A stretch of DNA of 34,271 nucleotides from a virus. Positions 3,050 through 33,586 of the stretch are shown here, one piece after another. Within the stretch, counting starts at the first letter, position 1. Each line of letters begins with the position of its first letter. The translations under genes were made by a program, and so were the position numbers. The notes under the pieces are model-generated. The model did not search any database and was not told the origin of the DNA. It saw only the letters and a list, made by a program, of their open reading frames with translations. The DNA lies in IMG/VR virus record IMGVR_UViG_3300050045_000012, positions 1-34,271 of that record. The stretch is one strand, 5' to 3'.

Positions 3050-4006
3050 ATGATTGTCAAATCTGTATTGGCAGGGGGAGGCATGCTCAAGCCTCTCCTG
3101 ATTCCCGCCCCCGAATGTCGGGGGTTTGGGTTGTGCAACCCCTCTGTTTTGGTGGATCAGGGTAAGATCTTGGTCAACCTGCGAAACGTCAATTACATTC
3201 TCTATCACTGTGAGAAAGAACAACTCAACAGTTGCTGGGGACCGCTCGCGTACTTGAACCCTGAACACGACCAGCATCTGCGAACACACAACTTCCTGTG
3301 CGAGCTGACACCTAGTCTAGATATTGCCAGTTATAAAAAAATTGACATGGCCCTAGACAAAGACCCCCTGTGGGAGTTCGTGGGACTGGAAGACGCTCGC
3401 CTGGTGAGGTGGGGTGGCCTATATGCGATAGGCGTGCGCCGGGATACGACAACGAACGGGGCGGGACGGATGGAGTTGTCTGAACTAGTCGAGGGGAGAG
3501 AAGTAAGCAGATACCGTATCGAACCTCCCTCACCTTCCTATTGCGAAAAGAATTGGATGCCAGTGCTCGACCGGCCTTTTCATTTTGTGAAGTGGGTGAA
3601 CCCCACGGAGGTTGTAGTAGTTGATATAAAAACACTGCGGGCTACTCAGTTAAGGCCAGTGGACGAAGACAGCACAATCAAGGGACTGCCAGATTTGCGT
3701 GGCGGGTCGCAGCTCATCCCGTGGCGGGAGTACTATATTTGCATCGTGCATGATGTGAATCTGTTTAACAATCCACTAGGCCAAAAGAACGGCGTGTACC
3801 GGCACAGGTTCGTGGTGTTCGACAGGGATCTTAAGTTAGTTAAGATTGGAGAACAGTTCTCGTTCATGGGAGCCCGCATAGAGTTCTGCTGTGGACTAGC
3901 GGAATGGAGAAAAGACCTTCTCGTCACATTTGCGTTTCAGGACAATTGTGGGTTTATACTGAGTATTCCGGAGGCAATGATTGAGCAAATTGTTGGAGTT
4001 CGTTAA
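3050..4006 (+). CDS. GH130-like five-bladed beta-propeller protein (sugar-active)
   Basis: This 318-residue protein carries motifs of the GH130/GH43-like propeller superfamily in order: NPSV (30-33), RNVNY (45-49), EDAR (114-117), EKNWMP (166-171), GGSQ (218-221) and an EFCCGLA block near 275. GH130 enzymes are phosphorylases or hydrolases on mannosides, and similar proteins occur in viral and bacterial glycan loci. The substrate here cannot be told. The ATG at 3050 follows TATACT by six bases with no spaced Shine-Dalgarno, suggesting a leaderless start. An internal ATG at 3083 has GGGGGAGG only one base away, too close to be convincing. It overlaps the next gene by 26 bases. It runs opposite to the flanking structural genes, like a moron. 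Confidence 0.75.
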   Translation: MIVKSVLAGGGMLKPLLIPAPECRGFGLCNPSVLVDQGKILVNLRNVNYILYHCEKEQLNSCWGPLAYLNPEHDQHLRTHNFLCELTPSLDIASYKKIDMALDKDPLWEFVGLEDARLVRWGGLYAIGVRRDTTTNGAGRMELSELVEGREVSRYRIEPPSPSYCEKNWMPVLDRPFHFVKWVNPTEVVVVDIKTLRATQLRPVDEDSTIKGLPDLRGGSQLIPWREYYICIVHDVNLFNNPLGQKNGVYRHRFVVFDRDLKLVKIGEQFSFMGARIEFCCGLAEWRKDLLVTFAFQDNCGFILSIPEAMIEQIVGVR

Positions 4007-4520
4007 CGACAACGAGAATCCGCAGCGTAGTTTTGAGCTGGGCCTGTGGTACGAGAGCCTGGGACATGTGGCTGCAGCGGCGGGGCTGTATCTTCGGGCA
4101 GCGGAGAACTCTACTGGAGTGTTGTCCTACGAGGCATTGCTTCGGATGGCAAATTGTTTCGTAATACAGGGAGATTTGCTGCACGTCATAAAAGGCGTAC
4201 TGCTCCGGGCCATCTCTCTGTGCCCGTCTAGGCCAGAGGCGTATTTTTTATTGAGCAGAGTGTACGAGAGAAACAAAGAATGGCACGAGGCCTACACCTT
4301 CGCTGTTATGGGCCAGAGGTTCGACGTCGGCCTTCCCCTACAGACTTATGTAGACTACCCGGGGGAGTATGCACTGGTGTTTCAGCAGGCGGTGGCCGCT
4401 TGGTGGATTGGTCTGTTCGAGGAGTCTATCTCTTTGCTTAAAAAACTAGATAACTGCAAGAAGATATCCCCAGTGTACGCTATAGCGGTTAGCAGTAATT
4501 TGTATAGGCTTACCCACTGA
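3981..4520 (+). CDS. TPR-like helical repeat protein
   Basis: The product is 179 residues made of paired helices with TPR-type spacing (LGLWYESLGHVAAAAGLYLRAA, then a YEALLRMANCFVIQGDL block and a PEAYFLLSRVYERNKEWHEA block). The start is TTG at 3981 with GGAGG six bases upstream. The nearby ATG at 3977 belongs to the frame of the upstream gene. It overlaps the end of the GH130-like gene by 26 bases, so the two are likely translated together. TPR proteins often accompany glycosyltransferases or sugar-active enzymes as scaffolds, so a partner role is inferred. The 3' end overlaps the oppositely oriented fibre gene by 11 bases. Confidence 0.7.
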   Translation: MSKLLEFVNDNENPQRSFELGLWYESLGHVAAAAGLYLRAAENSTGVLSYEALLRMANCFVIQGDLLHVIKGVLLRAISLCPSRPEAYFLLSRVYERNKEWHEAYTFAVMGQRFDVGLPLQTYVDYPGEYALVFQQAVAAWWIGLFEESISLLKKLDNCKKISPVYAIAVSSNLYRLTH

Positions 4521-5679
4521 TCCACACCCCGGGACAAGTAGAGTTGGTATTCATCACACTTATCGCTGGCAGTGTGGCGGGAAGAACTCCCGCTGTGCCT
4601 GCTGAGGTTTTAAGCCCCACTTGTAATAGGGACTGGCCCGGGGGGCTATTCATTATGGCGGCGGCGGCATTGGCGGTGGTGAGGGAGGGGGCCAGTCCAC
4701 CCATAGCCATAGCGTTGGCAGTAGAAGCGCAAATGGCTAAGTAATACCACCCAGGGAGCAGGGTTATGCTAGCCGCAGATGCGTAAGCCGAGCCGTTCCA
4801 TGTGTACAATCCGACTGTTTGAGTTGTGGCGCTGTTTCCATTAATTCCCCCATGGGTGCCGAGGACAATAGTGCTCCCGGCTGTCATAGGATATAGGCCA
4901 AAATCGATGACCATCGCTGAGCCTAGGGCCGTCGTAACTGTACATGTCAAGTTCTTGACGGTAATTGGCTCGGCGAGATAGAACCCCCAGAAGCAGGCCC
5001 CATTAGCCGCAAAGTTTCCCGGGACTGCTCCCGTTAAGCCCGTAGGCAGGACTCCAACAATCCCGCAACCTGCCCAGAAGCCTTGCCCCGGGTTGGGGGC
5101 AAGGCCGGGAAGAAACGTCAACCCCTGAATCCCCTGAATCCCCTGAATCCCCTGAATCCCCTGAATCCCCTGAATCCCCCGAGTCCCTACCCTGCCCTGA
5201 ATCCCCCGAGTCCCCTGAGCCCCTTGTGTGCCCTGAGTACCTGTTGCTCCCTGAATTCCCTGAGCCCCTTGAACGCTGGAGGCGGTGCCTTGTGTGCCTT
5301 GAGTTCCCTGAGCCCCTTGTGTGCCAGCGATACCCTGAGCCCCTTGTGTGCCCTGAGCCCCAGCGATACCTTGAGTACCTGTTGCTCCCTGAGCCCCAGC
5401 AGCTCCCTGAGCCCCAGCAGCTCCTTGAGACCCTTGTGTGCCAGTGATGCCCTGAGTACCTGTTGCTCCCTGAGCCCCTTGTGTGCCCTGAGTACCTGTT
5501 GCTCCCTGAATTCCCTGAGTACCTGTTGCTCCCTGAGGTCCGGAAGCACTCTGGAGAATGATGGTGTTGAACGGATTGGCCGATGTCCCGAGAGTTTGCA
5601 GCCCATCGGTGATCTTAACTGGCCAGCCGTTGGGTTCAGTGTTGGGGGTGCCTTGGTTGATTGTTTCGAGAAACGCCAT
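4510..5679 (-). CDS. Collagen-like tail fibre protein A
   Basis: This is a 389-residue fibre. A short head (residues 1-46, MAFLETINQG...) is followed by a collagen-like Gly-X-Y region (about 47-186) rich in GTQ, GAQ, GAT and GIQ triplets, with a brief break near TASSV (132-136). A C-terminal beta-rich domain (190-389) begins at [12 protein letters not shown]. Collagen-like stretches trimerise in many phage fibres, and the C-terminal domain would be the tip or receptor-binding part. It is a close paralogue of the next gene upstream (5682-6839): head and C-terminal domains match strongly while the repeats differ. Near 5120-5177 a nine-base unit (CCCTGAATC, plus-strand reading) repeats, so slippage could change length without breaking the frame. 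Confidence 0.85.
   Translation of the reverse strand: MAFLETINQGTPNTEPNGWPVKITDGLQTLGTSANPFNTIILQSASGPQGATGTQGIQGATGTQGTQGAQGATGTQGITGTQGSQGAAGAQGAAGAQGATGTQGIAGAQGTQGAQGIAGTQGAQGTQGTQGTASSVQGAQGIQGATGTQGTQGAQGTRGIQGRVGTRGIQGIQGIQGIQGIQGIQGLTFLPGLAPNPGQGFWAGCGIVGVLPTGLTGAVPGNFAANGACFWGFYLAEPITVKNLTCTVTTALGSAMVIDFGLYPMTAGSTIVLGTHGGINGNSATTQTVGLYTWNGSAYASAASITLLPGWYYLAICASTANAMAMGGLAPSLTTANAAAAIMNSPPGQSLLQVGLKTSAGTAGVLPATLPAISVMNTNSTCPGVWISG
5120..5177. repeat. Nine-base tandem repeats coding GIQ triplets
   Basis: About six near-perfect copies of a nine-base unit (CCCTGAATC on the plus strand) encode consecutive Gly-Ile-Gln triplets at the end of the collagen-like region of fibre A. A change in copy number would keep the reading frame. 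Wider nine-base periodicity covers the whole collagen-like part of both fibre genes (about 5120-5545 and 6290-6720). Confidence 0.8.
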
Positions 5680-5681
5680 AT

Positions 5682-6839
5682 TTATCCACTAATCCAAACT
5701 GCCGGGCAACTACCGTCGGTAGTCATCGCGGATAGAGTCGGCAGTGTAGCAGGAAGAACCCCGGCGGTGCAGGCGGAGGCGGCTAAACCCACCTGTATGG
5801 GGTTCTGGCTTCCTGTACTATTCATCACAGCATTGGCAAGGTTAGCCGCAGCCAATGCCCCTATGGCAGCGAGAGTGACGGTCGCGTTAGTAGCAGAAGC
5901 CCCAAGGGCTAAGTAATACCATCCCGCCGTCAAAGTTATGCTAGCCGCAGATACGTAAGCCGAGCCGCTCCATGTGTACAATCCGACTGTTTGAGTTGTG
6001 GCGCTGTTTCCATTAATTCCCCCATTGGTGCCGAGGACAATAGTGCTCCCGGCTGTCATAGGATATAGGCCAAAATCGACGACCATCGCTGAGCCTTTGG
6101 CCACCGTAACTGTACATGTCAAGTTCTTGACGGTAATTGGCTCGGCGAGATAGAACCCCCAGAAGCATGCCCCATTAGCCGCAAAGTTTCCAGGAATAGC
6201 GGCGGCCACACCACCAGGTACGATCCCAAAAACTCCACAACCTGCCCAGAATCCTTGCCCCGGGTTGGGAGTAAGGGTAGGTAGAACTGCCAACCCCTGA
6301 GTCCCCTGAACGCCCTGAGTCCCCTGAACGCCCTGAGTCCCTGTGGTCCCCTGAGTCCCCTGAACGCCCTGAGTCCCCTGAACGCCCTGAGTCCCCTGAG
6401 TCCCTGTGGTCCCCTGAGTCCCTGTGGTCCCCTGAGTCCCTGTGGTCCCCTGACTTCCTGTGGTCCCTTGAATCCCTGTAGTCCCCTGAATACCTGTGGT
6501 CCCCTGAGGCCCTGTAGTGCCTTGACTAGTTGCCCCCTGACTTCCTGTGGGTCCTTGAATACCTGTGGTCCCCTGAGGCCCGGTTCCCGTCGATCCCTGA
6601 ATCCCTGTGGTCCCCTGAATACCTGTGGTCCCCTGAGGCCCTGTAGTGCCTTGACCCGTCGCCCCCGTTGTTCCCTGAGTCCCAGTGGCTCCCTGAGGCC
6701 CAGCTATACCTTGGGCACCTGTGGTGTAGAAAGGGTTTTGTAATGTCCCGAGCGTCTGCAGCCCGTCGGTGACTTTTATAGGCCAGCCGTTGGCTTCAGT
6801 GTTCGGATTGCCTTGGTTCATTGTTTCAAGAAACGACAC
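5682..6839 (-). CDS. Collagen-like tail fibre protein B
   Basis: This 385-residue paralogue of fibre A has a head (1-40, [10 protein letters not shown]...), a Gly-X-Y region (about 41-182) and a C-terminal beta-rich domain from [12 protein letters not shown]. The repeats are richer in threonine (GTT, GTQ, GVQ) than in fibre A and contain short breaks (TGQGTTG near 61, ATSQG near 103). The start is GTG at 6839, whose G is also the last base of the upstream TAG stop, so translation is coupled. The long identical blocks in the C-terminal half point to a recent tandem duplication. The last part of the C-terminal domain differs ([12 protein letters not shown] versus ANAAAAIMNSPPG). Confidence 0.85.
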
Positions 6840-7366
6840 TATGACACCACCCAGTTAGAAGTTCCGTCATAAATAAAAGTAGCTGAAGTTCCATTCCACT
6901 CCATCTGCACGGATGCTGCCCCGTCAACGGTTCCCCCGTCGGCGTCTTCGATTGTCACCACAATACCGCTGGCGCTATAGTTCTTGACTGTGACTGTCCA
7001 CGCCATCTGCACGCCAGTCAGTTGTATCGTGCAGTTGGCCGTAGCTGTCACTTCGACGCAATAGTCTGACGGCCCTGACGTATAATTCCCGGTTACAGCC
7101 ACCACCTGCAGAACTACAGTAGGTGAGGGAGATGGGCCTGAGCCCCCGCCCGCAGAAGCCCCTGGGGCGGGATTTTGGGTGACTCCGCTAGTAGGCTTAG
7201 ATATCTGAACCGTTTGAATTGGCTCATTGGGAACGAGGGCAGCCACTGAAGTAGCCAGCTTATTCACCGTCGCCACCACGTCATCGAAGGCTTCTGCCAC
7301 GTCCCGACCTTTGGGAGCCGCAGCCGAGCGGATGCCGTTCAGAGTTCGTATATTTATCTTGGCCAT
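6839..7366 (-). CDS. Small fibre-associated virion protein
   Basis: The 175-residue product begins with a helical segment (residues 1-45, [19 protein letters not shown]). A Pro/Gly/Ser linker (about 60-80) leads to a beta-rich C-terminal domain ending in [12 protein letters not shown]. Endings of the DGTxW type are common at the tips of phage fibre or baseplate proteins. I chose the ATG at 7366, which has AGGA eight bases upstream and clears the stop of the nozzle gene by 19 bases. The frame stays open further upstream to 7465, but that would overlap the nozzle gene. It sits between nozzle and fibres, so a linker or attachment role is plausible. Confidence 0.7.
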
Positions 7367-7385
7367 GTTGGTTATCCTGGCCCTG

Positions 7386-11747: not shown

Positions 11748-11750
11748 GGG

Positions 11751-12845
11751 TTATTGCCCCGATCTTCGGCCACGCCCAGCAGCTCGAAATGGCTTACGAA
11801 CAAAAGTTGAATATGCCTGCTTACGGCTAGTCTGGTTTATGATTTGCGAGATGGCTTCCTCTGCTCGCTCTTTGAATATCTGAGCCATAGGGCCGCCTCT
11901 AGCGCCAGACAACTGATCCAAAAGGAGCAGAGCAAGGGCTGTAGATATGCCCCGAGGATAGATATAAGTATTAAGCGTAGTGATATCCGGAGCTGCGGCA
12001 ATGTATTTCATCCTCAGATTGTTCGTGAAGCTGGCCCCCGGAAGCACTAGCTTGTCGTTAGCAAACGACCATGCACCAAAACGCGGCTGTATGGTGCCCG
12101 GATTGAGAGAGTCGGGTACTTGGGTCATTAGCCGCCATGGTCCACCCGCTGCCCCCGTCTGAACTTCCCACAACTCCAGCGGCTTGATCATATCTGACGG
12201 AAGTGCCGGGCCGGGTACTGCGAAGGATTGCCAGAACAGCGGGGACTGATCGGGAACCATCGCCAGGTTGGCCGTAGCGTTCGGCTGGGCGGTGTAGTAC
12301 GTGCCTCCGTAAGCAACCTGCTGTCCTTGGGTGTAGGTAGTCCCCACGGCCCATGCTCCAACCGATATGGCTCCCGGCGTGAATATGTTCCATATGCCGA
12401 TGTTTAGATCAGGCTCTTGGTCTAAGCTCGATGCTGCCCCGTTCATGATGTAATAGACCGAGCTATAGACCACCGTCTGCCCGAACGTGTAGGTCACAAT
12501 AGATGACCATGTGGGTGCGGAGACATACGGCCCGACCCACACTAGGCCATTCCAGTAGCCGTTGTAGGTCAATAGCATCTTGATCTGGGGGTTCGACGTG
12601 GCGGTGGGACCGAGACCGTAGATCACGGCATCTTTCGAGAAGGTGTCAACTCCGCTGGAGATCAGGCGCTGTTGGAGGTAGCGATACCGCTCCATCAGGG
12701 CCGGTAAGATGGCCGGATTGGTAGTAGCGTTGAGAAGATTACCGCTCAGACCGTTAGGCGAGCCCGCGTCGTTAGCGAAGATTATCGCGTCCGTCAGGGC
12801 GGTCTGAGCGGTGTCGTAAGGATAGACTAAAGGGACAGAGGCCAT
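11751..12845 (-). CDS. Head-tail adaptor (T7 gp11-like) with two carbohydrate-binding-like modules
   Basis: This protein has 364 residues. The N-terminal part (1-95) and C-terminal part (about 215-364) resemble tail tubular protein A: a helical start, a strand-rich WRLMTQVPDSLNPG region, then a helical end (STALALLLLDQLSGARGG and an AEEAISQIINQ helix). Between them lie two consecutive modules, about 110-155 and 163-207. Each has the spacing W...Y..G..V.Y...YY......P......W of the CBM5/12 (ChtBD3) fold. The ATG follows TACTTT by exactly six bases and has no Shine-Dalgarno. The gene lies directly before the nozzle gene, as gp11 does before gp12 in T7-like phages. Confidence 0.7.
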   Translation of the reverse strand: MASVPLVYPYDTAQTALTDAIIFANDAGSPNGLSGNLLNATTNPAILPALMERYRYLQQRLISSGVDTFSKDAVIYGLGPTATSNPQIKMLLTYNGYWNGLVWVGPYVSAPTWSSIVTYTFGQTVVYSSVYYIMNGAASSLDQEPDLNIGIWNIFTPGAISVGAWAVGTTYTQGQQVAYGGTYYTAQPNATANLAMVPDQSPLFWQSFAVPGPALPSDMIKPLELWEVQTGAAGGPWRLMTQVPDSLNPGTIQPRFGAWSFANDKLVLPGASFTNNLRMKYIAAAPDITTLNTYIYPRGISTALALLLLDQLSGARGGPMAQIFKERAEEAISQIINQTSRKQAYSTFVRKPFRAAGRGRRSGQ

Positions 12846-12859
12846 ACAACTAAAGTATC
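12846..12859 (-). promoter_or_regulatory. Extended -10 promoter giving a leaderless start (adaptor gene)
   Basis: On the minus strand TGATACTTT is followed by six bases and the ATG of the adaptor gene. TACTTT fits the TANNNT -10 pattern and the upstream TG makes it an extended -10. No good -35 is present at 16-18 bases. The TAG inside the motif is the stop codon of the upstream zinc-ribbon gene. No Shine-Dalgarno lies before the ATG. Confidence 0.5.
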
Positions 12860-13734: not shown

Positions 13735-14474
13735 TACATATCTCCTTGCCGGAATCCCGGCTTGAACTCATCTCGTCGGATCTTGACACTCGCTGCAGCT
13801 AGTCTAGTCTTGTACTCTTCGATCTCTTGGCTCTGGTTCTGAAGGACTCCGGCCTGGTTGAAGGACAGACCTCTACGCACTCCGTGACTGGCGTCCCATT
13901 GTTCCTCGAACTCCCTGTCGAGCGCGCGCTCTTCTTCTTGTGCCAGATCTTCGTGAAACCTACGAATATCACCCACAGACCTAACGCGAGAAGCGTAAAT
14001 TCCCCGTAGGATTTGCGTAAGAGTGTCGGGTCGAAGAGGAGTGTTGTCAAAAAGACACACACACTCATAGACACCGTTAGCTGGATAAGGCCCACAGGCG
14101 AGGTATCCGTCTGGGGTGATAGTGGCTTCGCCCCAGGTTTTGGGGCTTCCGTAGTGCCGCGCGGACATCCATTTTTCGAGCACATAGCCTTGTTTCCCCG
14201 GATACCGAGCCTTTCGGCGGTAGGAAAAGCTGCCATCCGCCTCCCAGTACCCCCCGATGACCACGGTCCTCAGTTTTGCGTCACAGATGCGATATACGGG
14301 CTCGCCCAGCGGGTTTGACCCGTAGGGCCTACAGACCGCTAAAGTCCACGCTGGGACGATGCCTGTGGCCGCATGCACACTTGTAAAGGATGAGGGCTTT
14401 GGGAAAACTACTTCTACTTTTCCCAATAAAGGCGGCGAACTTCGTCCCAATAACGGTTGATGTATAAGTGCCAT
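13734..14474 (-). CDS. Hypothetical protein
   Basis: Up to 246 residues long, with no recognised family. The first half is strand-rich (LRTVVIGGYWEADGSFSYRR, then DGYLACGPYPANGVYECVCLF). The second half is helical and charged (DIRRFHEDLAQEEERALDREFEEQW). The start is uncertain. The ATG at 14474 overlaps the upstream gene by 61 bases and has no Shine-Dalgarno. Later TTG or GTG codons, for example TTG near 14420 or GTG near 14370, would shorten the overlap. The stop is coupled to the next gene as TAATG. The upstream neighbours are glycosyltransferase-like, but nothing in this protein ties it to sugar chemistry. Confidence 0.6.
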   Translation of the reverse strand: MALIHQPLLGRSSPPLLGKVEVVFPKPSSFTSVHAATGIVPAWTLAVCRPYGSNPLGEPVYRICDAKLRTVVIGGYWEADGSFSYRRKARYPGKQGYVLEKWMSARHYGSPKTWGEATITPDGYLACGPYPANGVYECVCLFDNTPLRPDTLTQILRGIYASRVRSVGDIRRFHEDLAQEEERALDREFEEQWDASHGVRRGLSFNQAGVLQNQSQEIEEYKTRLAAASVKIRRDEFKPGFRQGDM

Positions 14475-15217
14475 ATTTTGAAGGGGTTATGGCTCCCGCG
14501 AGGATAGGCTATGGAATTACGGATTTCAGGCTGCGGGTCGAGGATGTTCGGCTCCCAGCACCATGCGCCCGAGAGGATGAATCCCTCGTTCAGTCTTGGG
14601 ATATGCGGCCTGAGCACTGCATGGGCCAAGTGGTTGAGAATAGCTTGGTCTATGATCCCCGGGCGCGCGCAGCTGTAGAGCTGGCGCAATAGTTCCAATA
14701 TGGAACTATATTGCCCGGCGATTGTGCCCCCGCAGACCGTCTCCCGGTTCTTTATCAATTCGGCCTGTAGCCCCAGATACTGCTTCAGCCACAGGTAGTT
14801 GTCCCCGCACCGGTGCAGGGGCATAGACTCGGTGGCAAGAACAATTCCGCCCTTAGAGCGGAGATATGGGAATGGATCTGCCTGGAAGACGACATCCCGG
14901 ATGTCGGTGGCTATGACGTAATCGTAGCAGTTCTGCTCTAGATGCGCGATAATCGGCTCCCAGCGGACGGCGCTTGGGTGTAACTGGGTGGGCTTAGGTG
15001 TCCAGTCGATGACTTCTACACCGGACTGTCGTAAGGAAACGTGCAACTCTGGGCTTATTGCATGGGCGAATACAACCACCCGAGTATTCGCTATTCTCGA
15101 ACGAAGAATGCTATGCACCCACGCTCGGCAGTCGTCCCATCCACTGAGGAGATGCCCCACGGGGCTACTGGATTTACCAGTTTGCCATATAGAGGCGCAG
15201 ATTAAGTTTTGACCCAT
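14414..15217 (-). CDS. Glycosyltransferase-like protein with DxD region (GT-A fold)
   Basis: This 267-residue protein has the layout of GT8-like or related GT-A enzymes. An N-terminal nucleotide-binding region includes NTRVVVFAHAIS (44-55). An acidic cluster TDIRDVVFQADPF (104-116) supplies DxD-type metal-binding residues. A late NPFKIWHLYINRY segment (244-256) supplies a histidine where these families often have one. Such enzymes transfer a sugar from a nucleotide donor; donor and acceptor are unknown. I chose the ATG at 15217, ten bases after the upstream stop, although the frame extends further. No strong Shine-Dalgarno is present. It is paired with a second glycosyltransferase-like gene immediately upstream. 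Confidence 0.7.
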   Translation of the reverse strand: MGQNLICASIWQTGKSSSPVGHLLSGWDDCRAWVHSILRSRIANTRVVVFAHAISPELHVSLRQSGVEVIDWTPKPTQLHPSAVRWEPIIAHLEQNCYDYVIATDIRDVVFQADPFPYLRSKGGIVLATESMPLHRCGDNYLWLKQYLGLQAELIKNRETVCGGTIAGQYSSILELLRQLYSCARPGIIDQAILNHLAHAVLRPHIPRLNEGFILSGAWCWEPNILDPQPEIRNSIAYPRGSHNPFKIWHLYINRYWDEVRRLYWEK

Positions 15218-15227
15218 ATGAGCGTTC

Positions 15228-16073
15228 TCATCGGTATCTCCATCCGCAGGAAAAACACTGAGGCCCGTACAGCCCCATCTTGAATTTAACCCCCTGGCAG
15301 TTCTTACAAACACCCTCGAAATCCGGGTAGCGCTTGATGGGGGTCTTGCCTCGGTCCCACGCGTCTTTGATGTCCTGAGGCTCGAATTTTCCAGCCTTGG
15401 TGGATATGTGTTGGCTCACCGTAGCTGAGCACAGTAGTCCTCCCAGCAGACGATTCCCGACAAACGAGGCACTATGCGTGACTTTGATTCCCTGGTGGTG
15501 CAGCGCCTGAGCCGTGCTTTGATCTTCGGAGTAGTGCCGCACCGGCTCGTTGTATATAGCGCGTAGAGTCTTTTGCGAGAGGTAGTACCCGAATCCTCCG
15601 TGGAGGCAAGGCACCCGGTGAGGGTAAAGCGCAGTGGCCGAACCAGTGAAGGTCTGACCCACACAATTGTGTCCCTGGCAAGCACGCTCTAACCGAGCGG
15701 GAAATACTACCGTATCGCTGCAACACAGGAACAAGCCAGCATATTCGTGATCGATAGCCCAGCGTTGTATCGCTCGTCCCTTCCATGCGGTGCCTAGGTA
15801 ACAGTCGGGGCAGTCTAGGCCGACTTCATCGAGCAGAAGCGACTCCGATAGTGCGGGTCTATGGCGCTTCGTGGGGTGCATGTCGCCCAGGGTTCCGGCT
15901 GGACCGATTGTTGCGAGAACTTCAGGGTCTTCTTCGGGAACCCACGAAGACATACCAAGGAAGAATTTGAGATCCCAGCTCACGGGAACTTGCGCGCCCC
16001 ACGTCTTCCGGATCATCTGGCGGTGGGCTGTCTCTTTGTGGCAGCTCATTACTCCAATGAGTTTTTGGGGCAT
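15228..16073 (-). CDS. GT31-like glycosyltransferase with C-terminal zinc ribbon
   Basis: This is a 281-residue protein whose ordered motifs match the beta-1,3-galactosyl/GlcNAc transferase (GT31) family. RQMIRKTWG (18-26) corresponds to the family's RxxIRxTW. LFLCCSDTVVF (114-124) stands where the DxD motif is expected but is degenerate. HGGFGYYLS (158-166) and SEDQ (182-185) match the later GGxGYxxS and ED blocks. An unusual C-terminal ribbon (C256, C259, C273, C276) follows. I start at the ATG at 16073; the preceding codons overlap a small membrane-protein gene. The weakened DxD makes activity uncertain. It may act with the neighbouring GT-A protein on fibres or host glycans. Confidence 0.7.
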   Translation of the reverse strand: MPQKLIGVMSCHKETAHRQMIRKTWGAQVPVSWDLKFFLGMSSWVPEEDPEVLATIGPAGTLGDMHPTKRHRPALSESLLLDEVGLDCPDCYLGTAWKGRAIQRWAIDHEYAGLFLCCSDTVVFPARLERACQGHNCVGQTFTGSATALYPHRVPCLHGGFGYYLSQKTLRAIYNEPVRHYSEDQSTAQALHHQGIKVTHSASFVGNRLLGGLLCSATVSQHISTKAGKFEPQDIKDAWDRGKTPIKRYPDFEGVCKNCQGVKFKMGLYGPQCFSCGWRYR

Positions 16074-16228
16074 ACACCGTATCTCTGCTTCAGGATCTGG
16101 GGCCACCAGTCGGGGTGGTATAGTTTGAGGATGTCAATAAGGCCACGTTCCGCCGAGTATCGGCCAAAGGCTGCCCCAGCCACGAAAGAGCCGATAATCA
16201 TAAACCAGACTAGGAGGAGCGTGAGCAT
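16049..16228 (-). CDS. Small single-span membrane protein
   Basis: The product is 59 residues. An N-terminal hydrophobic helix (about residues 2-21, TLLLVWFMIIGSFVAGAAFG) is followed by a charged tail (RYSAERGLIDILKLYHPDWW...). The start ATG at 16228 lies inside the end of the upstream membrane-protein gene (19-base overlap) with no clear Shine-Dalgarno, so translational coupling is likely. The end overlaps the GT31-like gene by 25 bases. Small membrane proteins in phages may be holins, spanins or membrane anchors, and nothing here decides between them. Confidence 0.55.
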   Translation of the reverse strand: MLTLLLVWFMIIGSFVAGAAFGRYSAERGLIDILKLYHPDWWPQILKQRYGVCPKNSLE

Positions 16229-16620
16229 AGTTGGGACACCATGAAAGCCAACCAGATCACTATAGCATAGTCGAACAGGTATGCGCCAGCTTCTATTGCG
16301 AAATCCCCAACGGAGTAGATAGACCCCAAGTCCCACACATCAGCCAGAGCGTTAAGGTGAGTGCCCGAAGTCATCAGGCAATGCACATCATCGAGCATTA
16401 TAGTGCCGTCTGAATCCACAGAGACACGCTCATGGATGACCATCTTGCTGATGTCGATCACGGGCTCGGCTATCCGAATTACCTTACGTTCGTTGATTAG
16501 GACCGGGAACCGGTCATGGTTGGCAATGAGAACAGCTTGGTTAGAAGCCACGCCGAGCACGAACACCACGGCGGGAACGAGAGGAATCCACAGTCCTGTT
16601 TTTCGGAGAATACTCTGCAT
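16210..16620 (-). CDS. Two-span membrane protein (DUF5317-like)
   Basis: This 136-residue protein has hydrophobic segments at about 10-33 and 110-132. Between them is a conserved-looking extramembrane part with NHDRFPV (34-40), MLDDVHCLMTSGTHLNALAD (75-94) and IYSVGDF (101-107). The pattern N..FPV / LDD.H..M...THL..L.D / S.GD resembles DUF5317-type membrane proteins, whose function is unknown. AGGGG lies six bases before the ATG. It overlaps both its neighbours. With the 59-residue protein it forms the only membrane-protein cluster in the window, so it is a candidate for holin or host-envelope function. The lysozyme gene, however, is about 8 kb away. Confidence 0.65.
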   Translation of the reverse strand: MQSILRKTGLWIPLVPAVVFVLGVASNQAVLIANHDRFPVLINERKVIRIAEPVIDISKMVIHERVSVDSDGTIMLDDVHCLMTSGTHLNALADVWDLGSIYSVGDFAIEAGAYLFDYAIVIWLAFMVSQLCSRSS

Positions 16621-16717
16621 ACCTTACCCCTGCTGGAAAAAGAGCTGGTGCTATCAACCGGTCAACCCAAGGGTCAGGGGACTCTTCGGGGTAATCAGTC
16701 TCATACTCGACAATCAT
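16541..16717 (-). CDS. Possible small protein, strong RBS
   Basis: The ATG at 16717 has GGAGG seven bases upstream and opens a 58-residue frame (MIVEYETDYPEESPDPW...). It starts acidic and ends very Arg/Ser-rich (VDSSRSRRGVRARRGF). It fills the 134-base gap after the RmlD-like gene but overlaps the start of the next gene by 80 bases. The arginine-rich end may simply be the shadow of that gene. A longer in-frame ATG at 16774 follows TACTTT by four bases. The good ribosome site supports a real start; the overlap and odd tail count against the full length. Confidence 0.4.
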   Translation of the reverse strand: MIVEYETDYPEESPDPWVDRLIAPALFPAGVRYAEYSPKNRTVDSSRSRRGVRARRGF

Positions 16718-16754
16718 CACCGAACCTCCAACTGACGATTCGTGAAGCGTTGGG

Positions 16755-17579
16755 TTAAGCCGCTTCAGGCTCATTACTAAAGTATCTTTGCAGGGACTCC
16801 TGCCACGTAGGTACGACCAGACTGGGCTTTAACACCCCGTTTAATGGGTATTTGCATCCCCGAGGAGAAAACACCCCAGATATTGGGTTCTTTAGCCCCT
16901 CGAGATTCAAAATCTCCCGGGCGATTTCATAGAACGAGGCGCTATTGCTGGACCCGAGGTGAACGATTGGGTAATCCTTTTCCGTAAGTATTGACCAATA
17001 TAAGCACTCCACTACATCGAGCGTAAACAAGGGATTCACCATCTGGTCAAGGGGAAAAGTCATGGCTTTATTCTCCGCAGCCAGCCGCCTAACGGTGGAC
17101 ACGAAATTACGTCCCTTGCCCCGGTTCGGGGCGTGGCCATAGATTGGAGGCAATCGAATAATCGTGGCCGATAGACCGTGGGCTATCTCTTCGAGGATGG
17201 CACACTCACCTAGCCACTTAGAGTAGCCATACACGGTCTTCGGGTCGCATTGGTCTACTGTAGCGTAGGGGGTAGCTAGCTGGCCATTGAATACCATGTT
17301 GGTCGATATGTGAAGCAGCCGGATGTCCAGCTTTCGACACACATGGGCCAAGTTCCGGGGACCGAGGTAATTCGTCTCGAACGCCCGGTTGGGATTGTGC
17401 TCGCACTTGTCCACGTCGTGGTAGGCCGCACAGTTTATCACCACATCAAATCCATCTAGTACCGGCGCGGTGACGTTTTCTACAGAAATGACCTTGTGTG
17501 GGATGGATACAGCCGTGTGCCAGATTTTACATAGTTCCGTACCGAGCATCCCCTCGCCACCGAAGATTGCAATTTTCAT
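16755..17579 (-). CDS. RmlD-like NAD(P)-dependent sugar reductase (SDR family)
   Basis: This is a 274-residue extended SDR. It has a Rossmann motif GGEGMLG (7-13), the NCAAYHDVDKCE block (49-60) typical of dTDP-4-dehydrorhamnose reductases, ISTNMVFNG (91-99, usually STDYVFDG), and a catalytic YGYSK (Y117, K121). RmlD reduces dTDP-4-keto-L-rhamnose to dTDP-L-rhamnose. Here the product could be another deoxy sugar. I chose the ATG at 17579, which overlaps the upstream epimerase stop as ATGA. With that gene it forms a coupled pair transcribed from the promoter at 18522-18550. The asparagine in STNMVF, where the family has aspartate, is a small departure. Confidence 0.85.
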   Translation of the reverse strand: MKIAIFGGEGMLGTELCKIWHTAVSIPHKVISVENVTAPVLDGFDVVINCAAYHDVDKCEHNPNRAFETNYLGPRNLAHVCRKLDIRLLHISTNMVFNGQLATPYATVDQCDPKTVYGYSKWLGECAILEEIAHGLSATIIRLPPIYGHAPNRGKGRNFVSTVRRLAAENKAMTFPLDQMVNPLFTLDVVECLYWSILTEKDYPIVHLGSSNSASFYEIAREILNLEGLKNPISGVFSPRGCKYPLNGVLKPSLVVPTWQESLQRYFSNEPEAA

Positions 17580-18502
17580 AGCATCATCCTGATGTTGTAA
17601 AAACAATCCTGTTCATACCAATCCTTCGGGCGGTTGCCACAGGTGACTTGCAGTTCCCTAATGATCTCATATACACCGTCCTGCGGCTGATAGCCTATAT
17701 CCAAGTACGCCTTGCGACCGTCCATCCGGTAGTTCCGCATCTCGGGCTCTTCTTCGATGACCACTTTGCACTCCATTGCGCAGGCTACAGAGAGACCTAT
17801 ATAAGCCATGTCGTGATTCTCAGAGAGGATGTTGAACACCCCGCTGTGGGGCGTTGGGGCCTCAACTGCCGCAGCATACGCTCGTACTGCATCTGTCATG
17901 GCAAGAATAGGCCGCCAGATCTTCCCGTTGTGAACGGTCACTACGCCCGTAGTTACCGCATCCTTGAACATAGCATTGATGGCCAGATCGAAGCGCATCC
18001 GGGGGCTCCAGCCGGAGATCGTGCCTTTACGAAGTGCAATTACTTGGAAAGAACTATCGACTAATTGTAACACAGCGTTCTCGGCGGCCAGCTTGGACAG
18101 GCCATACGGATATGCCGGATGGACTAGTGCCGCCTCGTCCATTAGTAATGGACTCTGCCCATACACGGACGCGCTGCTGGCGAAGATGAACCGGGGCACC
18201 CCAGCTTGCTTGGCGATATACGCGAGGTAGGCCGGGGCGGCGGTATTCTGGATGTAGTTCTTCGCTGGGGAGTAGTTGGCCATCGGGTCGTTGGACAGGC
18301 CAGCCAAGAAGATTACCCGGTCGTAGCCCTCCAGATCCCCGATCTTCAGGGAGAACAGATCTTTATCATAGCAGGGGTAATCGGGGGAGGGGTTACCCAG
18401 ACGCTTGTCATCTACAGCGAAGACATCGTGCCCCTTAGAGATTAAGTAGGGGCAAACCCTCTGCCCCACGTATCCAGCGCCGCCAACAACTAAGATTTCC
18501 AA
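17576..18502 (-). CDS. NAD-dependent epimerase/dehydratase (extended SDR)
   Basis: The 308-residue protein has GGAGYVG (7-13), AGLSNDP (67-73), SSASVYG (109-115) and catalytic YGLSK (Y133, K137). It belongs to the nucleotide-sugar epimerase/dehydratase family (GalE/RmlB/WcaG-like). The exact reaction cannot be told. The start is TTG at 18502, set by a strong AGGAGG eight bases upstream. That ribosome site lies in the 3' arm of the hairpin following the capsid gene, and a full promoter overlaps the same hairpin. It is coupled to the RmlD-like gene by ATGA. The two proteins plausibly act in sequence on a nucleotide sugar. Confidence 0.85.
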   Translation of the reverse strand: MEILVVGGAGYVGQRVCPYLISKGHDVFAVDDKRLGNPSPDYPCYDKDLFSLKIGDLEGYDRVIFLAGLSNDPMANYSPAKNYIQNTAAPAYLAYIAKQAGVPRFIFASSASVYGQSPLLMDEAALVHPAYPYGLSKLAAENAVLQLVDSSFQVIALRKGTISGWSPRMRFDLAINAMFKDAVTTGVVTVHNGKIWRPILAMTDAVRAYAAAVEAPTPHSGVFNILSENHDMAYIGLSVACAMECKVVIEEEPEMRNYRMDGRKAYLDIGYQPQDGVYEIIRELQVTCGNRPKDWYEQDCFYNIRMML

Positions 18503-18507
18503 AAAGA

Positions 18508-18540
18508 AAACCTCCTGCGATAAAGTATCGCAGGAGGTTT
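18508..18540 (-). terminator. Strong hairpin terminator after capsid gene, hiding the next gene's RBS
   Basis: A perfect inverted repeat has arms 18511-18522 and 18526-18537 (CCTCCTGCGATA / TATCGCAGGAGG) around a three-base loop, extended by three A-T pairs. On the minus strand it is followed by TTTTCTTTTT, a typical intrinsic terminator, 18 bases after the capsid stop. The 3' arm contains the AGGAGG that serves the epimerase at 18502. Read-through RNA from the capsid gene would therefore keep that site paired. Confidence 0.85.
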
Positions 18541-18550
18541 AGTTTGTCAA
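18522..18550 (-). promoter_or_regulatory. Promoter embedded in the capsid terminator
   Basis: On the minus strand TTGACA (18550-18545), a 17-base spacer and TACTTT (18527-18522) form a near-consensus sigma70-type promoter. Its -10 box lies on the loop and inner stem of the terminator hairpin. Initiation would fall near 18515, after the 5' arm, so the new RNA would lack that arm and leave AGGAGG free for the epimerase start. Confidence 0.7.
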
Positions 18551-18557
18551 GCTGAAA

Positions 18558-19943
18558 CTAGTTGCTCCATCCGAGCGGCAGAGCCAACGTGTCGATGTAG
18601 GCACCGGCGCGGGGCTTGCTGTTCGCAATCTGGCCACCGAAGACGAAGTAGAAGGCAGTCGTGGGGGCCACGCCACCGTCAGATCCGTACAACGGGAAGG
18701 TCGTCATTCCGCCCACATCGAAGAGCGAGGGCGGCTTGACTTCCGTCTTGAACCAGTACTTGAAGTTGATGGCATCAACGCGCTGTTGACGCGCCTTGAT
18801 GTTGACAATCAGCTCATGGCCAGCCATTGTTTTGACGCGGCCCTTGGGCAGATAGTCTTTGCGGACGCTCTTGCTGTCGTCCGCGCTGTTTCCTTCCACG
18901 AACTCCGTCGCGCTCATGGCGAAGGTTCCGCCCAAGCTGGAGGAGCTATACAGGCCCAAGTTCTCCCAAGCGGTTACTTGGTCGGTGTTGGCCTGGATCA
19001 CGAAGTCTGTCAGCTCGTCGCAGTCAGATCCGTTCGCGCGCTGCAGGAGCGATTCCATCAACTGGAACTGCTGAGGAACGAGGGCATCGCTGCCGCCGTT
19101 GATGTATACGCTGTTCAGAACTCCCGGCCAGGTGCTGCGGGGAATGCCGAACCAGTCGCCACTCGAAGATTGGTAGTTAATCGCCGGAACACCGTTCAGT
19201 GAAGCCGAAACGGTGGCAGACGTGTACCGATCTGGGATGTAGGTCTGGCTGATGGACAGAGTGGTAATCGCGGCAGAGCCGGAAACTACCAGAATGTCGG
19301 TCGCCTCGGTCCCGGCGGGCCAGTAGCTGGTGCTGTTGGGCTCCGCGAGGTAGAGGATGTTGTTGATGAGGTCGCAAGTCAGAACCAGAATGGATCCGCG
19401 AGCGGTCGCATAACCAGCGCTCATCACTTCGTAGTTGCAGCCAGCCTGGAAGTCGTTGGCGTTCGAGACTTGCAGGTAGTTCTGGTTGGACACCGGCGTA
19501 ACGGTGATCGTTCCGAGCCCGCCTCCGCCATCGGAGACTGCCATCAGGGCTTCCAAGTTGGTACGGAAGGCCTTCAGGTTGATGCGGAAGCTGTCTTTGT
19601 AGACATCGACCACGGACTTTTCTTTGCCGTCGGTCGCCCACTCAGCTCCCTTGGTGACCTGGCAAGCCTGGTTGAAGAACACCGGCGAAGCCACGCCCAC
19701 ATCGTACTGCTCGCCTCCACCGGTTCCCATCGAATCAGTAGTGCCATCCGGCACGAACTGCGCGAAGGTAGAACCCGGCTGGGCCAGGATTGGAATACGG
19801 ACCAAACGGTCAGAGACTTTGTAGTTCTCGAGATTCTGGAGACGGCCATAGAACTTGGCGTCTTGGTTGAACTGCGGATAGACTGAAGCGTTGAGTTTTT
19901 CAATCTCGACGCCAATCGCGGCTGCCTGGTTTAGATCTGCCAT
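18558..19943 (-). CDS. Major capsid protein (probable)
   Basis: The 461-residue protein has the size and arrangement expected of an HK97-fold major capsid protein. A helical N-terminus (ADLNQAAAIGVEIEKLNASV) leads into a basic loop region and a long beta-rich middle, ending with KYWFKTEVKPPSLFDVGG and a strand-rich tail. I chose the ATG at 19943, which has GGAG about nine bases upstream; the open frame begins earlier. A 160-base leader precedes it and a very strong terminator follows, fitting a highly expressed single-gene unit. No signature motif proves the fold, so the call rests on size, composition, neighbourhood (portal upstream) and expression signals. Phage GroEL could assist its folding. 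Confidence 0.7.
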   Translation of the reverse strand: MADLNQAAAIGVEIEKLNASVYPQFNQDAKFYGRLQNLENYKVSDRLVRIPILAQPGSTFAQFVPDGTTDSMGTGGGEQYDVGVASPVFFNQACQVTKGAEWATDGKEKSVVDVYKDSFRINLKAFRTNLEALMAVSDGGGGLGTITVTPVSNQNYLQVSNANDFQAGCNYEVMSAGYATARGSILVLTCDLINNILYLAEPNSTSYWPAGTEATDILVVSGSAAITTLSISQTYIPDRYTSATVSASLNGVPAINYQSSSGDWFGIPRSTWPGVLNSVYINGGSDALVPQQFQLMESLLQRANGSDCDELTDFVIQANTDQVTAWENLGLYSSSSLGGTFAMSATEFVEGNSADDSKSVRKDYLPKGRVKTMAGHELIVNIKARQQRVDAINFKYWFKTEVKPPSLFDVGGMTTFPLYGSDGGVAPTTAFYFVFGGQIANSKPRAGAYIDTLALPLGWSN

Positions 19944-20103
19944 GTTAGAACACTCCAAATGAGATTTTGGCGTTCCCAACTCCACCTAGGACAGACGGTT
20001 TCAGCACGAAGCTACGGGTTTCCGGTTCCGGGGCCTATCTTAGAGTTTGTTGCGCTCTATAGATAATAGTATCTAGACCGGGACCCTAAGAGGAGCAGCC
20101 TTC
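19944..20103 (-). promoter_or_regulatory. Leader region upstream of the capsid gene
   Basis: This 160-base non-coding stretch lies between the beta-rich gene at 20104 and the capsid start. On the minus strand TACTAT (20071-20066) inside an AT-rich patch is the best -10 candidate. It resembles the recurrent ATACTTTA motif, but no convincing -35 accompanies it. Below it the leader is GC-rich and could fold (CCGGAACCGGAAACC region near 20025). A promoter is expected here because of the strong terminator downstream, but the evidence is weak. Confidence 0.3.
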
Positions 20104-20670
20104 CTACGTGAGCAGAGCCATTGAGAGAAACGTGGAAGTACCACCAAGGACTGGCACAGTGCCGCCACAACTTTGGTAGACGTTTATGTAGACTTGGTCC
20201 CCAGCGTCCATTGCGATGATTTGCGAGATGCAGAACGACTGGTTAACCGTTGAGTCCGACGTGGACGACTGCTGGGCAAAGCACACCGGGCTACCACCAA
20301 GGACTGGTTGTTTGTACAACTGTGCAGCAATCTGTCCAACATTGTACTGTGCTGTCACGCTGAAGCCAGCGATAACAATATAGTACCCCTGCGTTGGAGC
20401 CGTTAGAACTGTAGGCGTTCCTGAACTGTACATTGAAGGAAAACCGGGCGATGCATTTGAATCTTCGTTCGTATCAAACGAAAGGACCAAACTCGTCGAT
20501 TGTCCTTCATCTGCTGTGGGCATGTTTTGTGAACCACTTGCATAGATATAAGTCGCGTTCACATTCAATGGTGCTGCTGCTGTGGTCTGTAAACTTCCGT
20601 CTGTAAACTGTACGGACTCGGTGTTTGTTAGGACGGAATCGCCACCCATAAGGTGTGTAAGTTGAGTCAT
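20104..20670 (-). CDS. Beta-rich virion protein, jelly-roll-like
   Basis: The product has 188 residues. The first 30 contain an SVQFTDGSLQTTAA segment, a common head of small phage fibre or decoration proteins. The rest alternates strands with GYYIVIAGFSVTAQYNVGQIAAQLYK and a GDQVYINVYQSCGGT...STFLSMALLT ending. That pattern recalls C1q/TNF-type jelly rolls. It overlaps the previous gene's stop as TAATG. Together with the 143-residue protein upstream it forms a pair beside the capsid gene, so head decoration or head fibre is plausible. Base composition appears somewhat more AT-rich than in the neighbours, hinting at separate acquisition. Confidence 0.65.
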   Translation of the reverse strand: MTQLTHLMGGDSVLTNTESVQFTDGSLQTTAAAPLNVNATYIYASGSQNMPTADEGQSTSLVLSFDTNEDSNASPGFPSMYSSGTPTVLTAPTQGYYIVIAGFSVTAQYNVGQIAAQLYKQPVLGGSPVCFAQQSSTSDSTVNQSFCISQIIAMDAGDQVYINVYQSCGGTVPVLGGTSTFLSMALLT

Positions 20671-21101
20671 TATGGCATCTCCACAAGTGAAGCACTGAGA
20701 GAGTATGCAGGGTCGTATGCACCGCCGTATGCTGTCGTCAACGTAATAGCCGTCGCTGCTTGAGCCAACAGAGGGTACGTTTCCATCACGACTTGTGCTA
20801 CAGAGAGTGATAGAACTAATGTAATCGTCTGAAGTCCAGAACCATCTGCAGCGGTATAAGTCAATGTCGCCGTCAATGTCTGCCCTGAAGTTCCAAGCCC
20901 TTTACTTGCCATGTAAATAGAAACAGTATACATCTGGGTCCCAGCAGCGGTAATGGTTATCGTCTGTGAACTGGTGGTGTTGATAAACTGCTCAGAAACC
21001 AGAATGACTGGTGCGACTTCTTGGAGTGTGCCAATCGCTTGCTCTAACGCTGTTAGAGCCTCCAACGGGTCGAGCCTTGAGAAATCAATGTCAATGAGCA
21101 T
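20670..21101 (-). CDS. Beta-rich protein, possible capsid decoration or attachment partner
   Basis: The 143-residue protein has a helical start (DFSRLDPLEALTALEQAIGTLQEV, residues 6-30). It is then almost entirely beta strands rich in Thr, Ala and Ser (SSQTITITAAGTQMYTVSIYMASKG). No family is recognised. The ATG at 21101 has no Shine-Dalgarno and follows TACTTT by exactly six bases, suggesting leaderless translation. The stop is coupled to the next gene as TAATG. The N-terminal helix could trimerise or anchor the protein while the beta domain is exposed. Confidence 0.6.
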   Translation of the reverse strand: MLIDIDFSRLDPLEALTALEQAIGTLQEVAPVILVSEQFINTTSSQTITITAAGTQMYTVSIYMASKGLGTSGQTLTATLTYTAADGSGLQTITLVLSLSVAQVVMETYPLLAQAATAITLTTAYGGAYDPAYSLSASLVEMP

Positions 21102-21115
21102 ACTACTAAAGTATC
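21102..21115 (-). promoter_or_regulatory. Extended -10 promoter giving a leaderless start (143-residue gene)
   Basis: On the minus strand TGATACTTT is followed by AGTAGT and the ATG at 21101. It is the same arrangement and nearly the same sequence as before the adaptor gene. The motif again supplies the end of the upstream gene (ATA CTT TAG codes Ile, Leu, stop). There is no -35-like hexamer at normal spacing and no Shine-Dalgarno. Confidence 0.5.
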
Positions 21116-21570
21116 AGAGGAGCAGCCCTCCGGTCCTTCTCGGACAGTATAGGCCACTTAATCGGCCACTTAATCCCAACGCTATCCCACCGGACTGCTC
21201 CCTCGGTCTTCGGGTCGAAGAACGCTGAGCACTTGTACTGAATCTCGGTGTTGTCGGTTAAGGCGCAGAACCCGCGAGCCCAGTGATCCGGAGCCCATAT
21301 CTGAAGGCCGTCCCGGTCACTTACAGTAGCCGTGAATGTCTCGCCCGTCCTGAGATTAACGGCGGCCAAGAAAGCCACGCCCCAGGTTACACGCATCAGC
21401 TTGCTCATGCCTGGCTGGTAGTGCATACCTCGGATGACGTTCTTGCGCGAGCAAGAATGATTGTCTTGGACGAATACAGGCAGTCTCCTGTAATCGGCCC
21501 TATATGTCTCGCTGAACCAACCCCGGTTGTCGGAGAATCGAGGGGGCTTCAGCAGAATGATCTCACTCAC
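21106..21570 (-). CDS. RmlC-like cupin sugar epimerase, shortened
   Basis: This 154-residue protein matches dTDP-4-dehydrorhamnose 3,5-epimerase: DNRGWFSE (14-21), FVQDNHSCS (33-41), RGMHYQ (47-52, with the catalytic-type His50), KLMRVTWG (57-64) and LSEKD near the end. RmlC proteins usually have about 180 residues. Two active-site positions look changed. The family's AHGF is ARGF (Arg99), and the tyrosine expected in the CSAxYxP region appears as Phe118 (CSAFFDP). Either full epimerase activity is lost or the enzyme does a related reaction. I chose GTG at 21570, which overlaps the phosphatase stop by eight bases. It probably works with the RmlD-like and SDR enzymes. Confidence 0.8.
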   Translation of the reverse strand: MSEIILLKPPRFSDNRGWFSETYRADYRRLPVFVQDNHSCSRKNVIRGMHYQPGMSKLMRVTWGVAFLAAVNLRTGETFTATVSDRDGLQIWAPDHWARGFCALTDNTEIQYKCSAFFDPKTEGAVRWDSVGIKWPIKWPILSEKDRRAAPLIL

Positions 21571-22141
21571 CGGGCTCTTCTTCTCCCAATAGAATCTCGT
21601 ATCTCCAGCCGTCTTTGTCCGGGTAAATAGCGATAATGCCGCCGGGGGAGATACAGGTGTCGTGTTTCTGCGTACCGTCCAACAGGTCGCAGAGGGCAAT
21701 TAAGTTGGTAGTATGGGCCACGAACAAAGTCACACAGTGCTCGTTGAGCTGATCCTCGAAGAAGTCTCCGGTTCGTTCCATGAACTCGTTGAGGGTTTCT
21801 CCGTTCTTGGGTCGCTTGTCGGGGTTGCGGATGTACTCTTCGAGCGCTTCCTCAAACTCCGCTTTAGGCTTGCCCCAGTACTCGGGGATGCTCCATGGGA
21901 ATAGCTGGTTGTTTTGCTCAATGCAGAGATTAGGGGCGATAATCTCCGCAGTCCTCACAGCGCGGCAGAGAGGAGACGATACTACTCGTTCTATAGATTG
22001 CCGAGAAAGAAACTGGTGGGCCACATCAGCGTCGTTGACGCCTTTTGGGGAAAGGGGCTCGTTGATTAATCCAGTGTAGAGTCCCCGCTCATTGAACTCG
22101 GTGGTTCCGTGGTGGACGACGAAGGCAACGGGTTTAGGCAT
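21563..22141 (-). CDS. Histidine phosphatase superfamily protein
   Basis: The 192-residue protein has the branch-1 histidine phosphatase layout: VHHGTTEFN (9-17), where the family has RHGxTxxN; SSPLCRAVRTAEII (55-68); a GET segment (114-116); and the second histidine in VAHTTN (141-146). The phospho-accepting His11 is kept, but the preceding arginine is replaced by histidine. Members remove phosphate from sugars and other small molecules. Next to an RmlC-like gene, a sugar-phosphate substrate is plausible. It is tightly coupled to the RmlC-like gene and begins three bases after the portal stop. No strong ribosome site is seen. Confidence 0.8.
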   Translation of the reverse strand: MPKPVAFVVHHGTTEFNERGLYTGLINEPLSPKGVNDADVAHQFLSRQSIERVVSSPLCRAVRTAEIIAPNLCIEQNNQLFPWSIPEYWGKPKAEFEEALEEYIRNPDKRPKNGETLNEFMERTGDFFEDQLNEHCVTLFVAHTTNLIALCDLLDGTQKHDTCISPGGIIAIYPDKDGWRYEILLGEEEPGE

Positions 22142-33585: not shown

Positions 33586-33586
33586 C

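What the first reader, a model, noticed from the sequence alone, without database searches (positions are those of the whole stretch)
3050..22141. Sugar-nucleotide and glycosyl-transfer genes scattered through the virion genes
An SDR epimerase, RmlD-like and RmlC-like enzymes, a histidine phosphatase, GT31-like and GT-A proteins, a GH130-like propeller and a TPR protein lie between capsid, portal and tail genes. RmlC and RmlD belong to deoxysugar synthesis. The collagen-like fibres are rich in threonine triplets. In Bacillus, the collagen-like spore protein BclA carries rhamnose-containing glycans on such triplets. The phage may glycosylate its own fibres; this last step is inference.
Basis: partly seen in the sequence, partly recalled or inferred. 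Interest (0 to 1): 0.8.

Follow-up and report, generated by a model that had tools for sequence, protein, structure and literature searches.

The report
Phage sugar enzymes beside collagen-like fibres
A soil phage genome carries sugar-handling genes among its virion genes, and one pair of them (a GH130-fold enzyme and its TPR partner) belongs to a large phage family that sits next to threonine-rich collagen-like fibre genes in many unrelated phages, which suggests, without proving it, that these phages sugar-coat their own fibres.

Summary
The listed genes are real, but they fall into separate sets. (1) RmlC, RmlD and an SDR epimerase are confirmed by Pfam. RmlC is absent from 90 of 91 related or collagen-bearing phage contigs, so the rhamnose/BclA link is not supported by co-occurrence. 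(2) The histidine phosphatase is a core gene of the closest relatives, which carry none of the other sugar genes. (3) The GT31-like protein is a true GT31 relative, kept in five of ten lineage members; only one of these has a clear collagen. (4) The 'GT-A' protein remains weakly supported. (5) The 'GH130-like' protein has a confident five-bladed GH130/GT108 fold. It belongs to a phage-specific family (595 or more viral contigs; 6 hits in 84,980 prokaryote genomes) with invariant active-site-type residues. Its homologues are followed by a TPR protein in 54 of 56 loci. 36 of 44 whole records with the gene also encode collagen, typically just upstream, and those collagens are rich in Thr/Gln and poor in Pro/Lys. 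Lysine poverty argues against the mimivirus hydroxylysine route. Best reading: GH130-like plus TPR is a fibre-modification module, probably a glycosyl transferase acting on Thr/Ser-rich collagen-like fibres. Linkage is shown; activity is inferred.

The parts
3050..4006 (+). GH130/GT108-fold enzyme, phage-specific family, 318 aa; probable glycosyl transferase or phosphorylase acting near fibres
   Evidence: AlphaFold2 pLDDT 92; VIA Z about 24 to GH130 phosphorylases and about 18 to GT108 MPT-2; 58-member family with invariant E114 D115 R117 R130 R131 D132 K167 H234 Y250 E278 D298
3981..4520 (+). TPR partner protein (179 aa, stand-alone here; in relatives the TPR-bearing gene often also has methyltransferase, radical SAM or glycosyltransferase domains)
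   Evidence: Pfam TPR; homologue in 54 of 56 GH130-family loci; downstream-gene domains
4510..5679 (-). collagen-like fibre protein 1
   Evidence: PF01391 2e-22; tail-fibre PHROGs
5682..6839 (-). collagen-like fibre protein 2, same N- and C-terminal domains as protein 1, Thr/Gln-rich triplets
   Evidence: PF01391 hits; triplets; tail-fibre PHROGs
14414..15217 (-). possible GT-A-type glycosyltransferase; call weak
   Evidence: 29% identity over 37% of the query to the C-terminal part of a Mycobacterium phage protein annotated glycosyltransferase, E 0.02; no Pfam or PDB hit; model pLDDT 38
15228..16106 (-). GT31-like (beta-1,3-galactosyltransferase type) protein with a C-terminal zinc ribbon
   Evidence: homologues over PF01762 cut-off; profile finds B3GALT6, B3GALT5 and a core-1 galactosyltransferase; conserved in 5 of 10 portal relatives
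16755..17606 (-). RmlD-like dTDP-4-dehydrorhamnose reductase homologue, YxxxK present
   Evidence: PF04321 4e-49; PDB RmlD 5e-27; below the TIGR01214 equivalog cut-off
17576..18502 (-). SDR sugar-nucleotide epimerase/dehydratase, YxxxK present
   Evidence: PF01370 6e-30; PDB MoeE5 and GalE
21106..21699 (-). RmlC-like 3,5-epimerase (RGxH, Tyr and Asp retained; AHGF changed to ARGF)
   Evidence: PF00908 8e-38; PDB RmlC 4e-31; below the TIGR01221 cut-off
21563..22141 (-). histidine phosphatase; a core gene of the closest relatives rather than of the sugar set
   Evidence: PF00300; conserved after the portal gene in L009-L011, which lack the other sugar genes

Best explanation
The GH130-fold protein and its TPR partner form a mobile two-gene phage module that modifies collagen-like tail fibres. 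Most likely the GH130-fold enzyme, working as a GT108-type transferase or a phosphorylase run in the synthetic direction, adds mannose or another sugar to a glycan on Thr/Ser residues of Gly-X-Y repeats, while the TPR protein recruits the fibre chain. In many relatives the TPR-bearing gene also brings an interchangeable finishing enzyme (FkbM methyltransferase, radical SAM, GT25, GT17 or GT2). In this phage the extra sugar chemistry may come from its own GT31-like, RmlC, RmlD and SDR genes, but that part is unlinked elsewhere and speculative. Shown: fold, conservation, gene linkage, collagen subtype. Inferred: catalysis, sugar, substrate, TPR role.
For: Fold GH130/GT108; 26 residues checked are invariant in 58 diverse sequences and the G-x-E-D-x-R motif is shared with GH130. 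Family is viral: at least 595 viral contigs versus 6 loci in 84,980 genomes. TPR homologue downstream on the same strand in 54 of 56 loci; in the fetched loci it occurs only in GH130-family contigs. 36 of 44 whole records with the gene have PF01391 over cut-off versus 2 of 19 portal relatives. Upstream Gly-X-Y runs within 4 kb in 16 of 29 loci versus 2 downstream, sign p 5e-4; distance test on 11 collagen-bearing long records, combined p 5e-7. Linked collagens are rich in Thr and Gln, poor in Pro, Lys, Asp and Glu versus 120 other viral collagen loci. In the window's own lineage the GH130 pair is found only in this genome, which has two collagen genes. A named cyanophage has the same neighbourhood.
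Against: 8 of 44 records lack a detectable collagen domain, and only 3 of 80 sampled collagen contigs have the GH130 gene, one of them a weak partial match, so neither needs the other. Proximity could reflect a general tail-fibre neighbourhood. The near-versus-far upstream test on 15 loci was not significant (p 0.29). The composition test does not correct for relatedness or habitat. The collagen genes in the window are convergent with, not co-transcribed with, the pair. No biochemical data.
Confidence: 0.5

Rival explanations
1. The enzymes remodel host surface glycans (LPS or capsule), for example to block superinfection or alter receptors, and sit near fibre genes because fibres and receptor-modifying genes travel together.
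For: RmlC, RmlD, SDR and GT families are typical of O-antigen synthesis (established knowledge); RmlC is nearly private to this phage; phage glycosyltransferases are often proposed to alter cell-wall glycosylation (PMC10202952).
Against: For the GH130-TPR pair, the steady linkage to one collagen subtype is not predicted.
Confidence: 0.25
2. The RmlC/RmlD/SDR/GT31/GT-A set alone glycosylates the fibres with rhamnose in BclA fashion.
For: All are coded between virion genes; Thr-rich triplets; BclA precedent (papers).
Against: RmlC absent from 41 of 42 GH130-family records, 40 of 40 other collagen contigs and 9 of 9 lineage relatives; GT31-like kept in lineage members without collagen; no RmlA or RmlB found in the window.
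Confidence: 0.1
3. The GH130-like protein is a phosphorylase or hydrolase that degrades mannosides for entry or for carbon supply, unrelated to fibres.
For: Closest structural matches are GH130 phosphorylases and hydrolases.
Against: Near-obligate TPR partner, with methyltransferase, radical SAM or GT domains in the adjacent genes, and fibre linkage fit synthesis better than degradation; an entry enzyme would be expected to be fused to a virion protein.
Confidence: 0.1

Closest known systems
GH130 beta-mannoside phosphorylases and GT108 dual mannosyltransferase-phosphorylases of Leishmania
   Same: same five-bladed fold over the whole length; shared G-x-E-D-x-R motif; GT108 shows that this fold can synthesise beta-mannosides (PMC8950772)
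   Different: 10-15% identity; Ala in place of Pro in the motif; below the Pfam cut-off; phage-specific; TPR partner; activity untested
Mimivirus L230 collagen lysyl hydroxylase/glucosyltransferase
   Same: virus-encoded enzyme acting on virus-encoded collagen-like proteins (PMC9614988)
   Different: works through hydroxylysine; the collagens linked here have almost no lysine; unrelated enzymes
Mycobacteriophage virion glycosylation (Freeman 2023, cited in PMC12619734)
   Same: phage-encoded glycosyltransferases modify virion proteins
   Different: capsid and tail-tube termini rather than collagen-like fibres; different enzymes; one weak similarity only, from the window GT-A candidate to an annotated GT of Mycobacterium phage ScoobyDoobyDoo
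Bacillus BclA exosporium glycoprotein
   Same: rhamnose-containing oligosaccharide on a collagen-like region (papers)
   Different: spore protein; its deoxysugar link is not reproduced by gene co-occurrence here

Membership tests
GH130/GT108 (window 3050-4006) | five-bladed beta-propeller fold over full length | tested here: met
   pLDDT 92 model, Z about 24, 275 residues aligned
GH130/GT108 (window 3050-4006) | sequence over the Pfam PF04041 cut-off | tested here: not met
   window protein no hit; 14 of 58 relatives hit at E up to 0.1, best 1e-4
GH130/GT108 (window 3050-4006) | catalytic Asp in the E-D-P-R motif | tested here: inconclusive
   E114-D115-A-R117 with E, D and R invariant; equivalence by motif only; hhalign to one GH130 protein was not significant and aligned another region
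GH130/GT108 (window 3050-4006) | phosphorylase or transferase activity | not testable with these tools
   needs enzyme assay
GT31 (window 15228-16106) | Galactosyl_T homology | tested here: met
   relatives over PF01762 cut-off; profile to solved GT31 at 4e-6
GT31 (window 15228-16106) | D-x-D metal motif | tested here: inconclusive
   window reads C-S-D-T; only one Asp invariant there; N-terminal copies in relatives read C-D-x-D-T
GT-A glycosyltransferase (window 14414-15217) | GT-A fold or family homology | tested here: inconclusive
   one weak phage hit; unusable model
RmlD | RmlD domain and YxxxK | tested here: met
RmlD | equivalog cut-off TIGR01214 | tested here: not met
   159 of 224 bits
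RmlC | RmlC domain with catalytic His, Tyr and Asp | tested here: met
   alignment to solved RmlC; roles of the residues from established knowledge
RmlC | equivalog cut-off TIGR01221 | tested here: not met
   127 of 156 bits
BclA-like deoxysugar glycosylation of collagen | deoxysugar genes co-occur with collagen-like fibres | tested here: not met
   RmlC in 1 of 42 GH130-family records and 0 of 49 others
Mimivirus-type hydroxylysine glycosylation | Lys in Gly-X-Y triplets | tested here: not met
   0 Lys in 72 triplets of the window; median 0 in linked collagens

The most novel reading that the evidence does not exclude
A widespread phage-specific branch of the GH130/GT108 fold is a dedicated protein glycosyltransferase for Thr-rich collagen-like tail fibres, with a TPR adaptor and interchangeable finishing enzymes: a modular post-translational decoration system for phage receptor-contacting fibres.
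Probability: 0.3. Interest if true: 0.8.

Novelty: new variant of a known kind. Interest (0 to 1): 0.55.

Why it matters
If true, phages of several habitats chemically decorate the fibres that meet the host, using a beta-propeller enzyme fold known so far from mannoside metabolism. That would add a variable, enzyme-made layer to host recognition and to shielding of virions, explain many unannotated genes beside fibre genes, and give a prokaryotic-virus route to glycosylated collagen-like material. The hypothesis is directly testable in cultured cyanophages that carry the pair.

Tried and rejected
Single-protein scans for GT-A and SDR relatives in viral contigs found nothing; the single-protein GT31 scan failed and an alignment was needed. 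The single-sequence GT-A model was unusable. hhalign of the GH130-like family against one bacterial GH130 protein was not significant, nor was the family profile against PDB sequences; only the fold comparison works. No tblastn relatives of the collagen protein ends were found in the loci held at that point. The near-versus-far upstream collagen comparison was underpowered. Rejected: the phosphatase as part of the sugar set (core gene of relatives); recent acquisition by composition (GC similar to neighbours). Freeman 2023 is not held. Literature searches with GH130 plus phage plus mannosyltransferase, and FkbM plus phage plus collagen, found no paper; only an open-access library was searched.

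Full report
What the window is. The window is a complete 34,271-base IMG/VR virus record, probably a genome fragment. Portal-gene relatives occur in 75 viral loci but in no named phage. Terminase, endolysin, portal-like, capsid-like, tail and collagen genes all lie on the minus strand, with the GH130-like/TPR pair on plus. The portal and capsid names rest on order and size; neither protein has a Pfam, PHROG or PDB match.

Enzyme identities. SDR, RmlD, RmlC, histidine phosphatase and TPR are supported by Pfam and, for the first three, by solved relatives. RmlC and RmlD fall below the NCBI equivalog cut-offs, so their exact reactions are open. The GT31-like protein has no direct hit, but five lineage relatives carry homologues, three of them over the PF01762 cut-off and two just below, and the family profile finds solved beta-1,3-galactosyltransferases. 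The GT-A label remains weak.

The GH130-like protein. Three annotated phages hold relatives; two are 45-47% identical. A 58-member alignment gave a model with mean pLDDT 92. Its best structural matches are GH130 phosphorylases (Z about 24) and, lower, GT108 Leishmania mannosyltransferases (Z about 18). Twenty-six checked residues are invariant, and the G-x-E-D-x-R stretch matches the GH130 motif. Catalytic equivalence of D115 is inference.

The two-gene module. Of 56 non-redundant loci with enough downstream sequence, 54 carry a homologue of the window's TPR protein within 2.5 kb on the same strand, mostly abutting. Among all fetched loci, TPR homologues occur only in contigs that carry the GH130-like gene. 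The first gene downstream of GH130, scanned in 60 members, often carries FkbM methyltransferase (16), SPASM/radical SAM (11 and 10), DUF6445 (6), GT25 (4), GT17 or GT2 (2 each) domains, and TPR repeats are common in the same set. The window version is a stand-alone 179-residue TPR protein.

Link to collagen-like fibres. Gly-X-Y runs concentrate just upstream of the gene: 36% of loci in the second kilobase, falling to 7% at ten kilobases, and 0-8% downstream. Of 29 loci with 4 kb on each side, 15 have collagen only upstream, 1 only downstream, 1 on both sides and 12 on neither. Of 44 whole records, 36 have PF01391 over cut-off, against 2 of 19 portal relatives. On eleven long collagen-bearing records the gene lies closer to collagen than chance (combined p 5e-7). 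The upstream genes often match tail-fibre and collagen-like minor tail PHROGs. In cyanophage DSL-LC02 the gene is the direct neighbour of a collagen-like gene. The linked collagens are a distinct subtype: per triplet, median Thr 0.58 versus 0.23, Gln 0.53 versus 0.14, Pro 0.03 versus 0.25, Lys 0 versus 0.03 in 120 other viral collagen loci. The window shares this composition. The reciprocal link is weak: 3 of 80 collagen contigs carry the gene, one of them a partial match.

RmlC occurs in 1 of 42 GH130-family records, 0 of 40 other collagen contigs and 0 of 9 lineage relatives. The closest relatives have portal, phosphatase, capsid and G12 without the RmlC group or the SDR-RmlD-DUF5317-GT31-GTA group, so these look like two insertions. 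GT31-like genes occur in five lineage members of which only one has a clear collagen. The deoxysugar genes may therefore serve fibres or host surface glycans; the data do not decide.

Mechanism. The best-supported reading is a fibre-modification module: GH130-fold enzyme as glycosyl transfer catalyst, TPR protein as adaptor, variable finishing domains in the adjacent gene. GT108 shows that this fold can synthesise beta-mannosides (PMC8950772). Lack of lysine argues against the mimivirus hydroxylysine route (PMC9614988) for these triplets; Thr and Ser are the plausible acceptors. Phage-encoded virion glycosylation is established for mycobacteriophages (cited in PMC12619734), so the kind of process is known; the enzyme family, partner and substrate would be new.

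Limits. No activity has been tested. The 80 loci examined are those most similar to the window, of at least 595. Association tests use clustered but not phylogeny-corrected loci. Novelty was checked only in an open-access library.

Noticed in passing
28650-30484: Phage-encoded GroEL/GroES-like pair between terminase and a scaffold-like gene, conserved in most close portal relatives.
   Followed up: partly
32548-34270: MoxR-type AAA ATPase followed by a CobT-like gene that ends in a Lys/Pro/Glu/Asp/Ser tandem repeat at the window edge.
   Followed up: no
11751-12845: Tail-region protein with a carbohydrate-binding module CBM5/12 over the Pfam cut-off.
   Followed up: no
16210-16620: DUF5317 protein inside the sugar-gene insertion.
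   Followed up: no
L096:6372-7754, L099:1264-2721, L101:3712-5124: GT31-like domains in tandem duplicate in relatives; zinc-ribbon-like C-termini in the window protein, L093, L099 and L104.
   Followed up: partly
20104-21101: Two small proteins beside the capsid-like gene, one weakly like tail-fibre C-termini; no homologue in the closest relatives.
   Followed up: no
L085:8935-11088: Cyanophage gene beside the GH130-like gene fuses TPR, FkbM methyltransferase and radical SAM/SPASM domains.
   Followed up: partly
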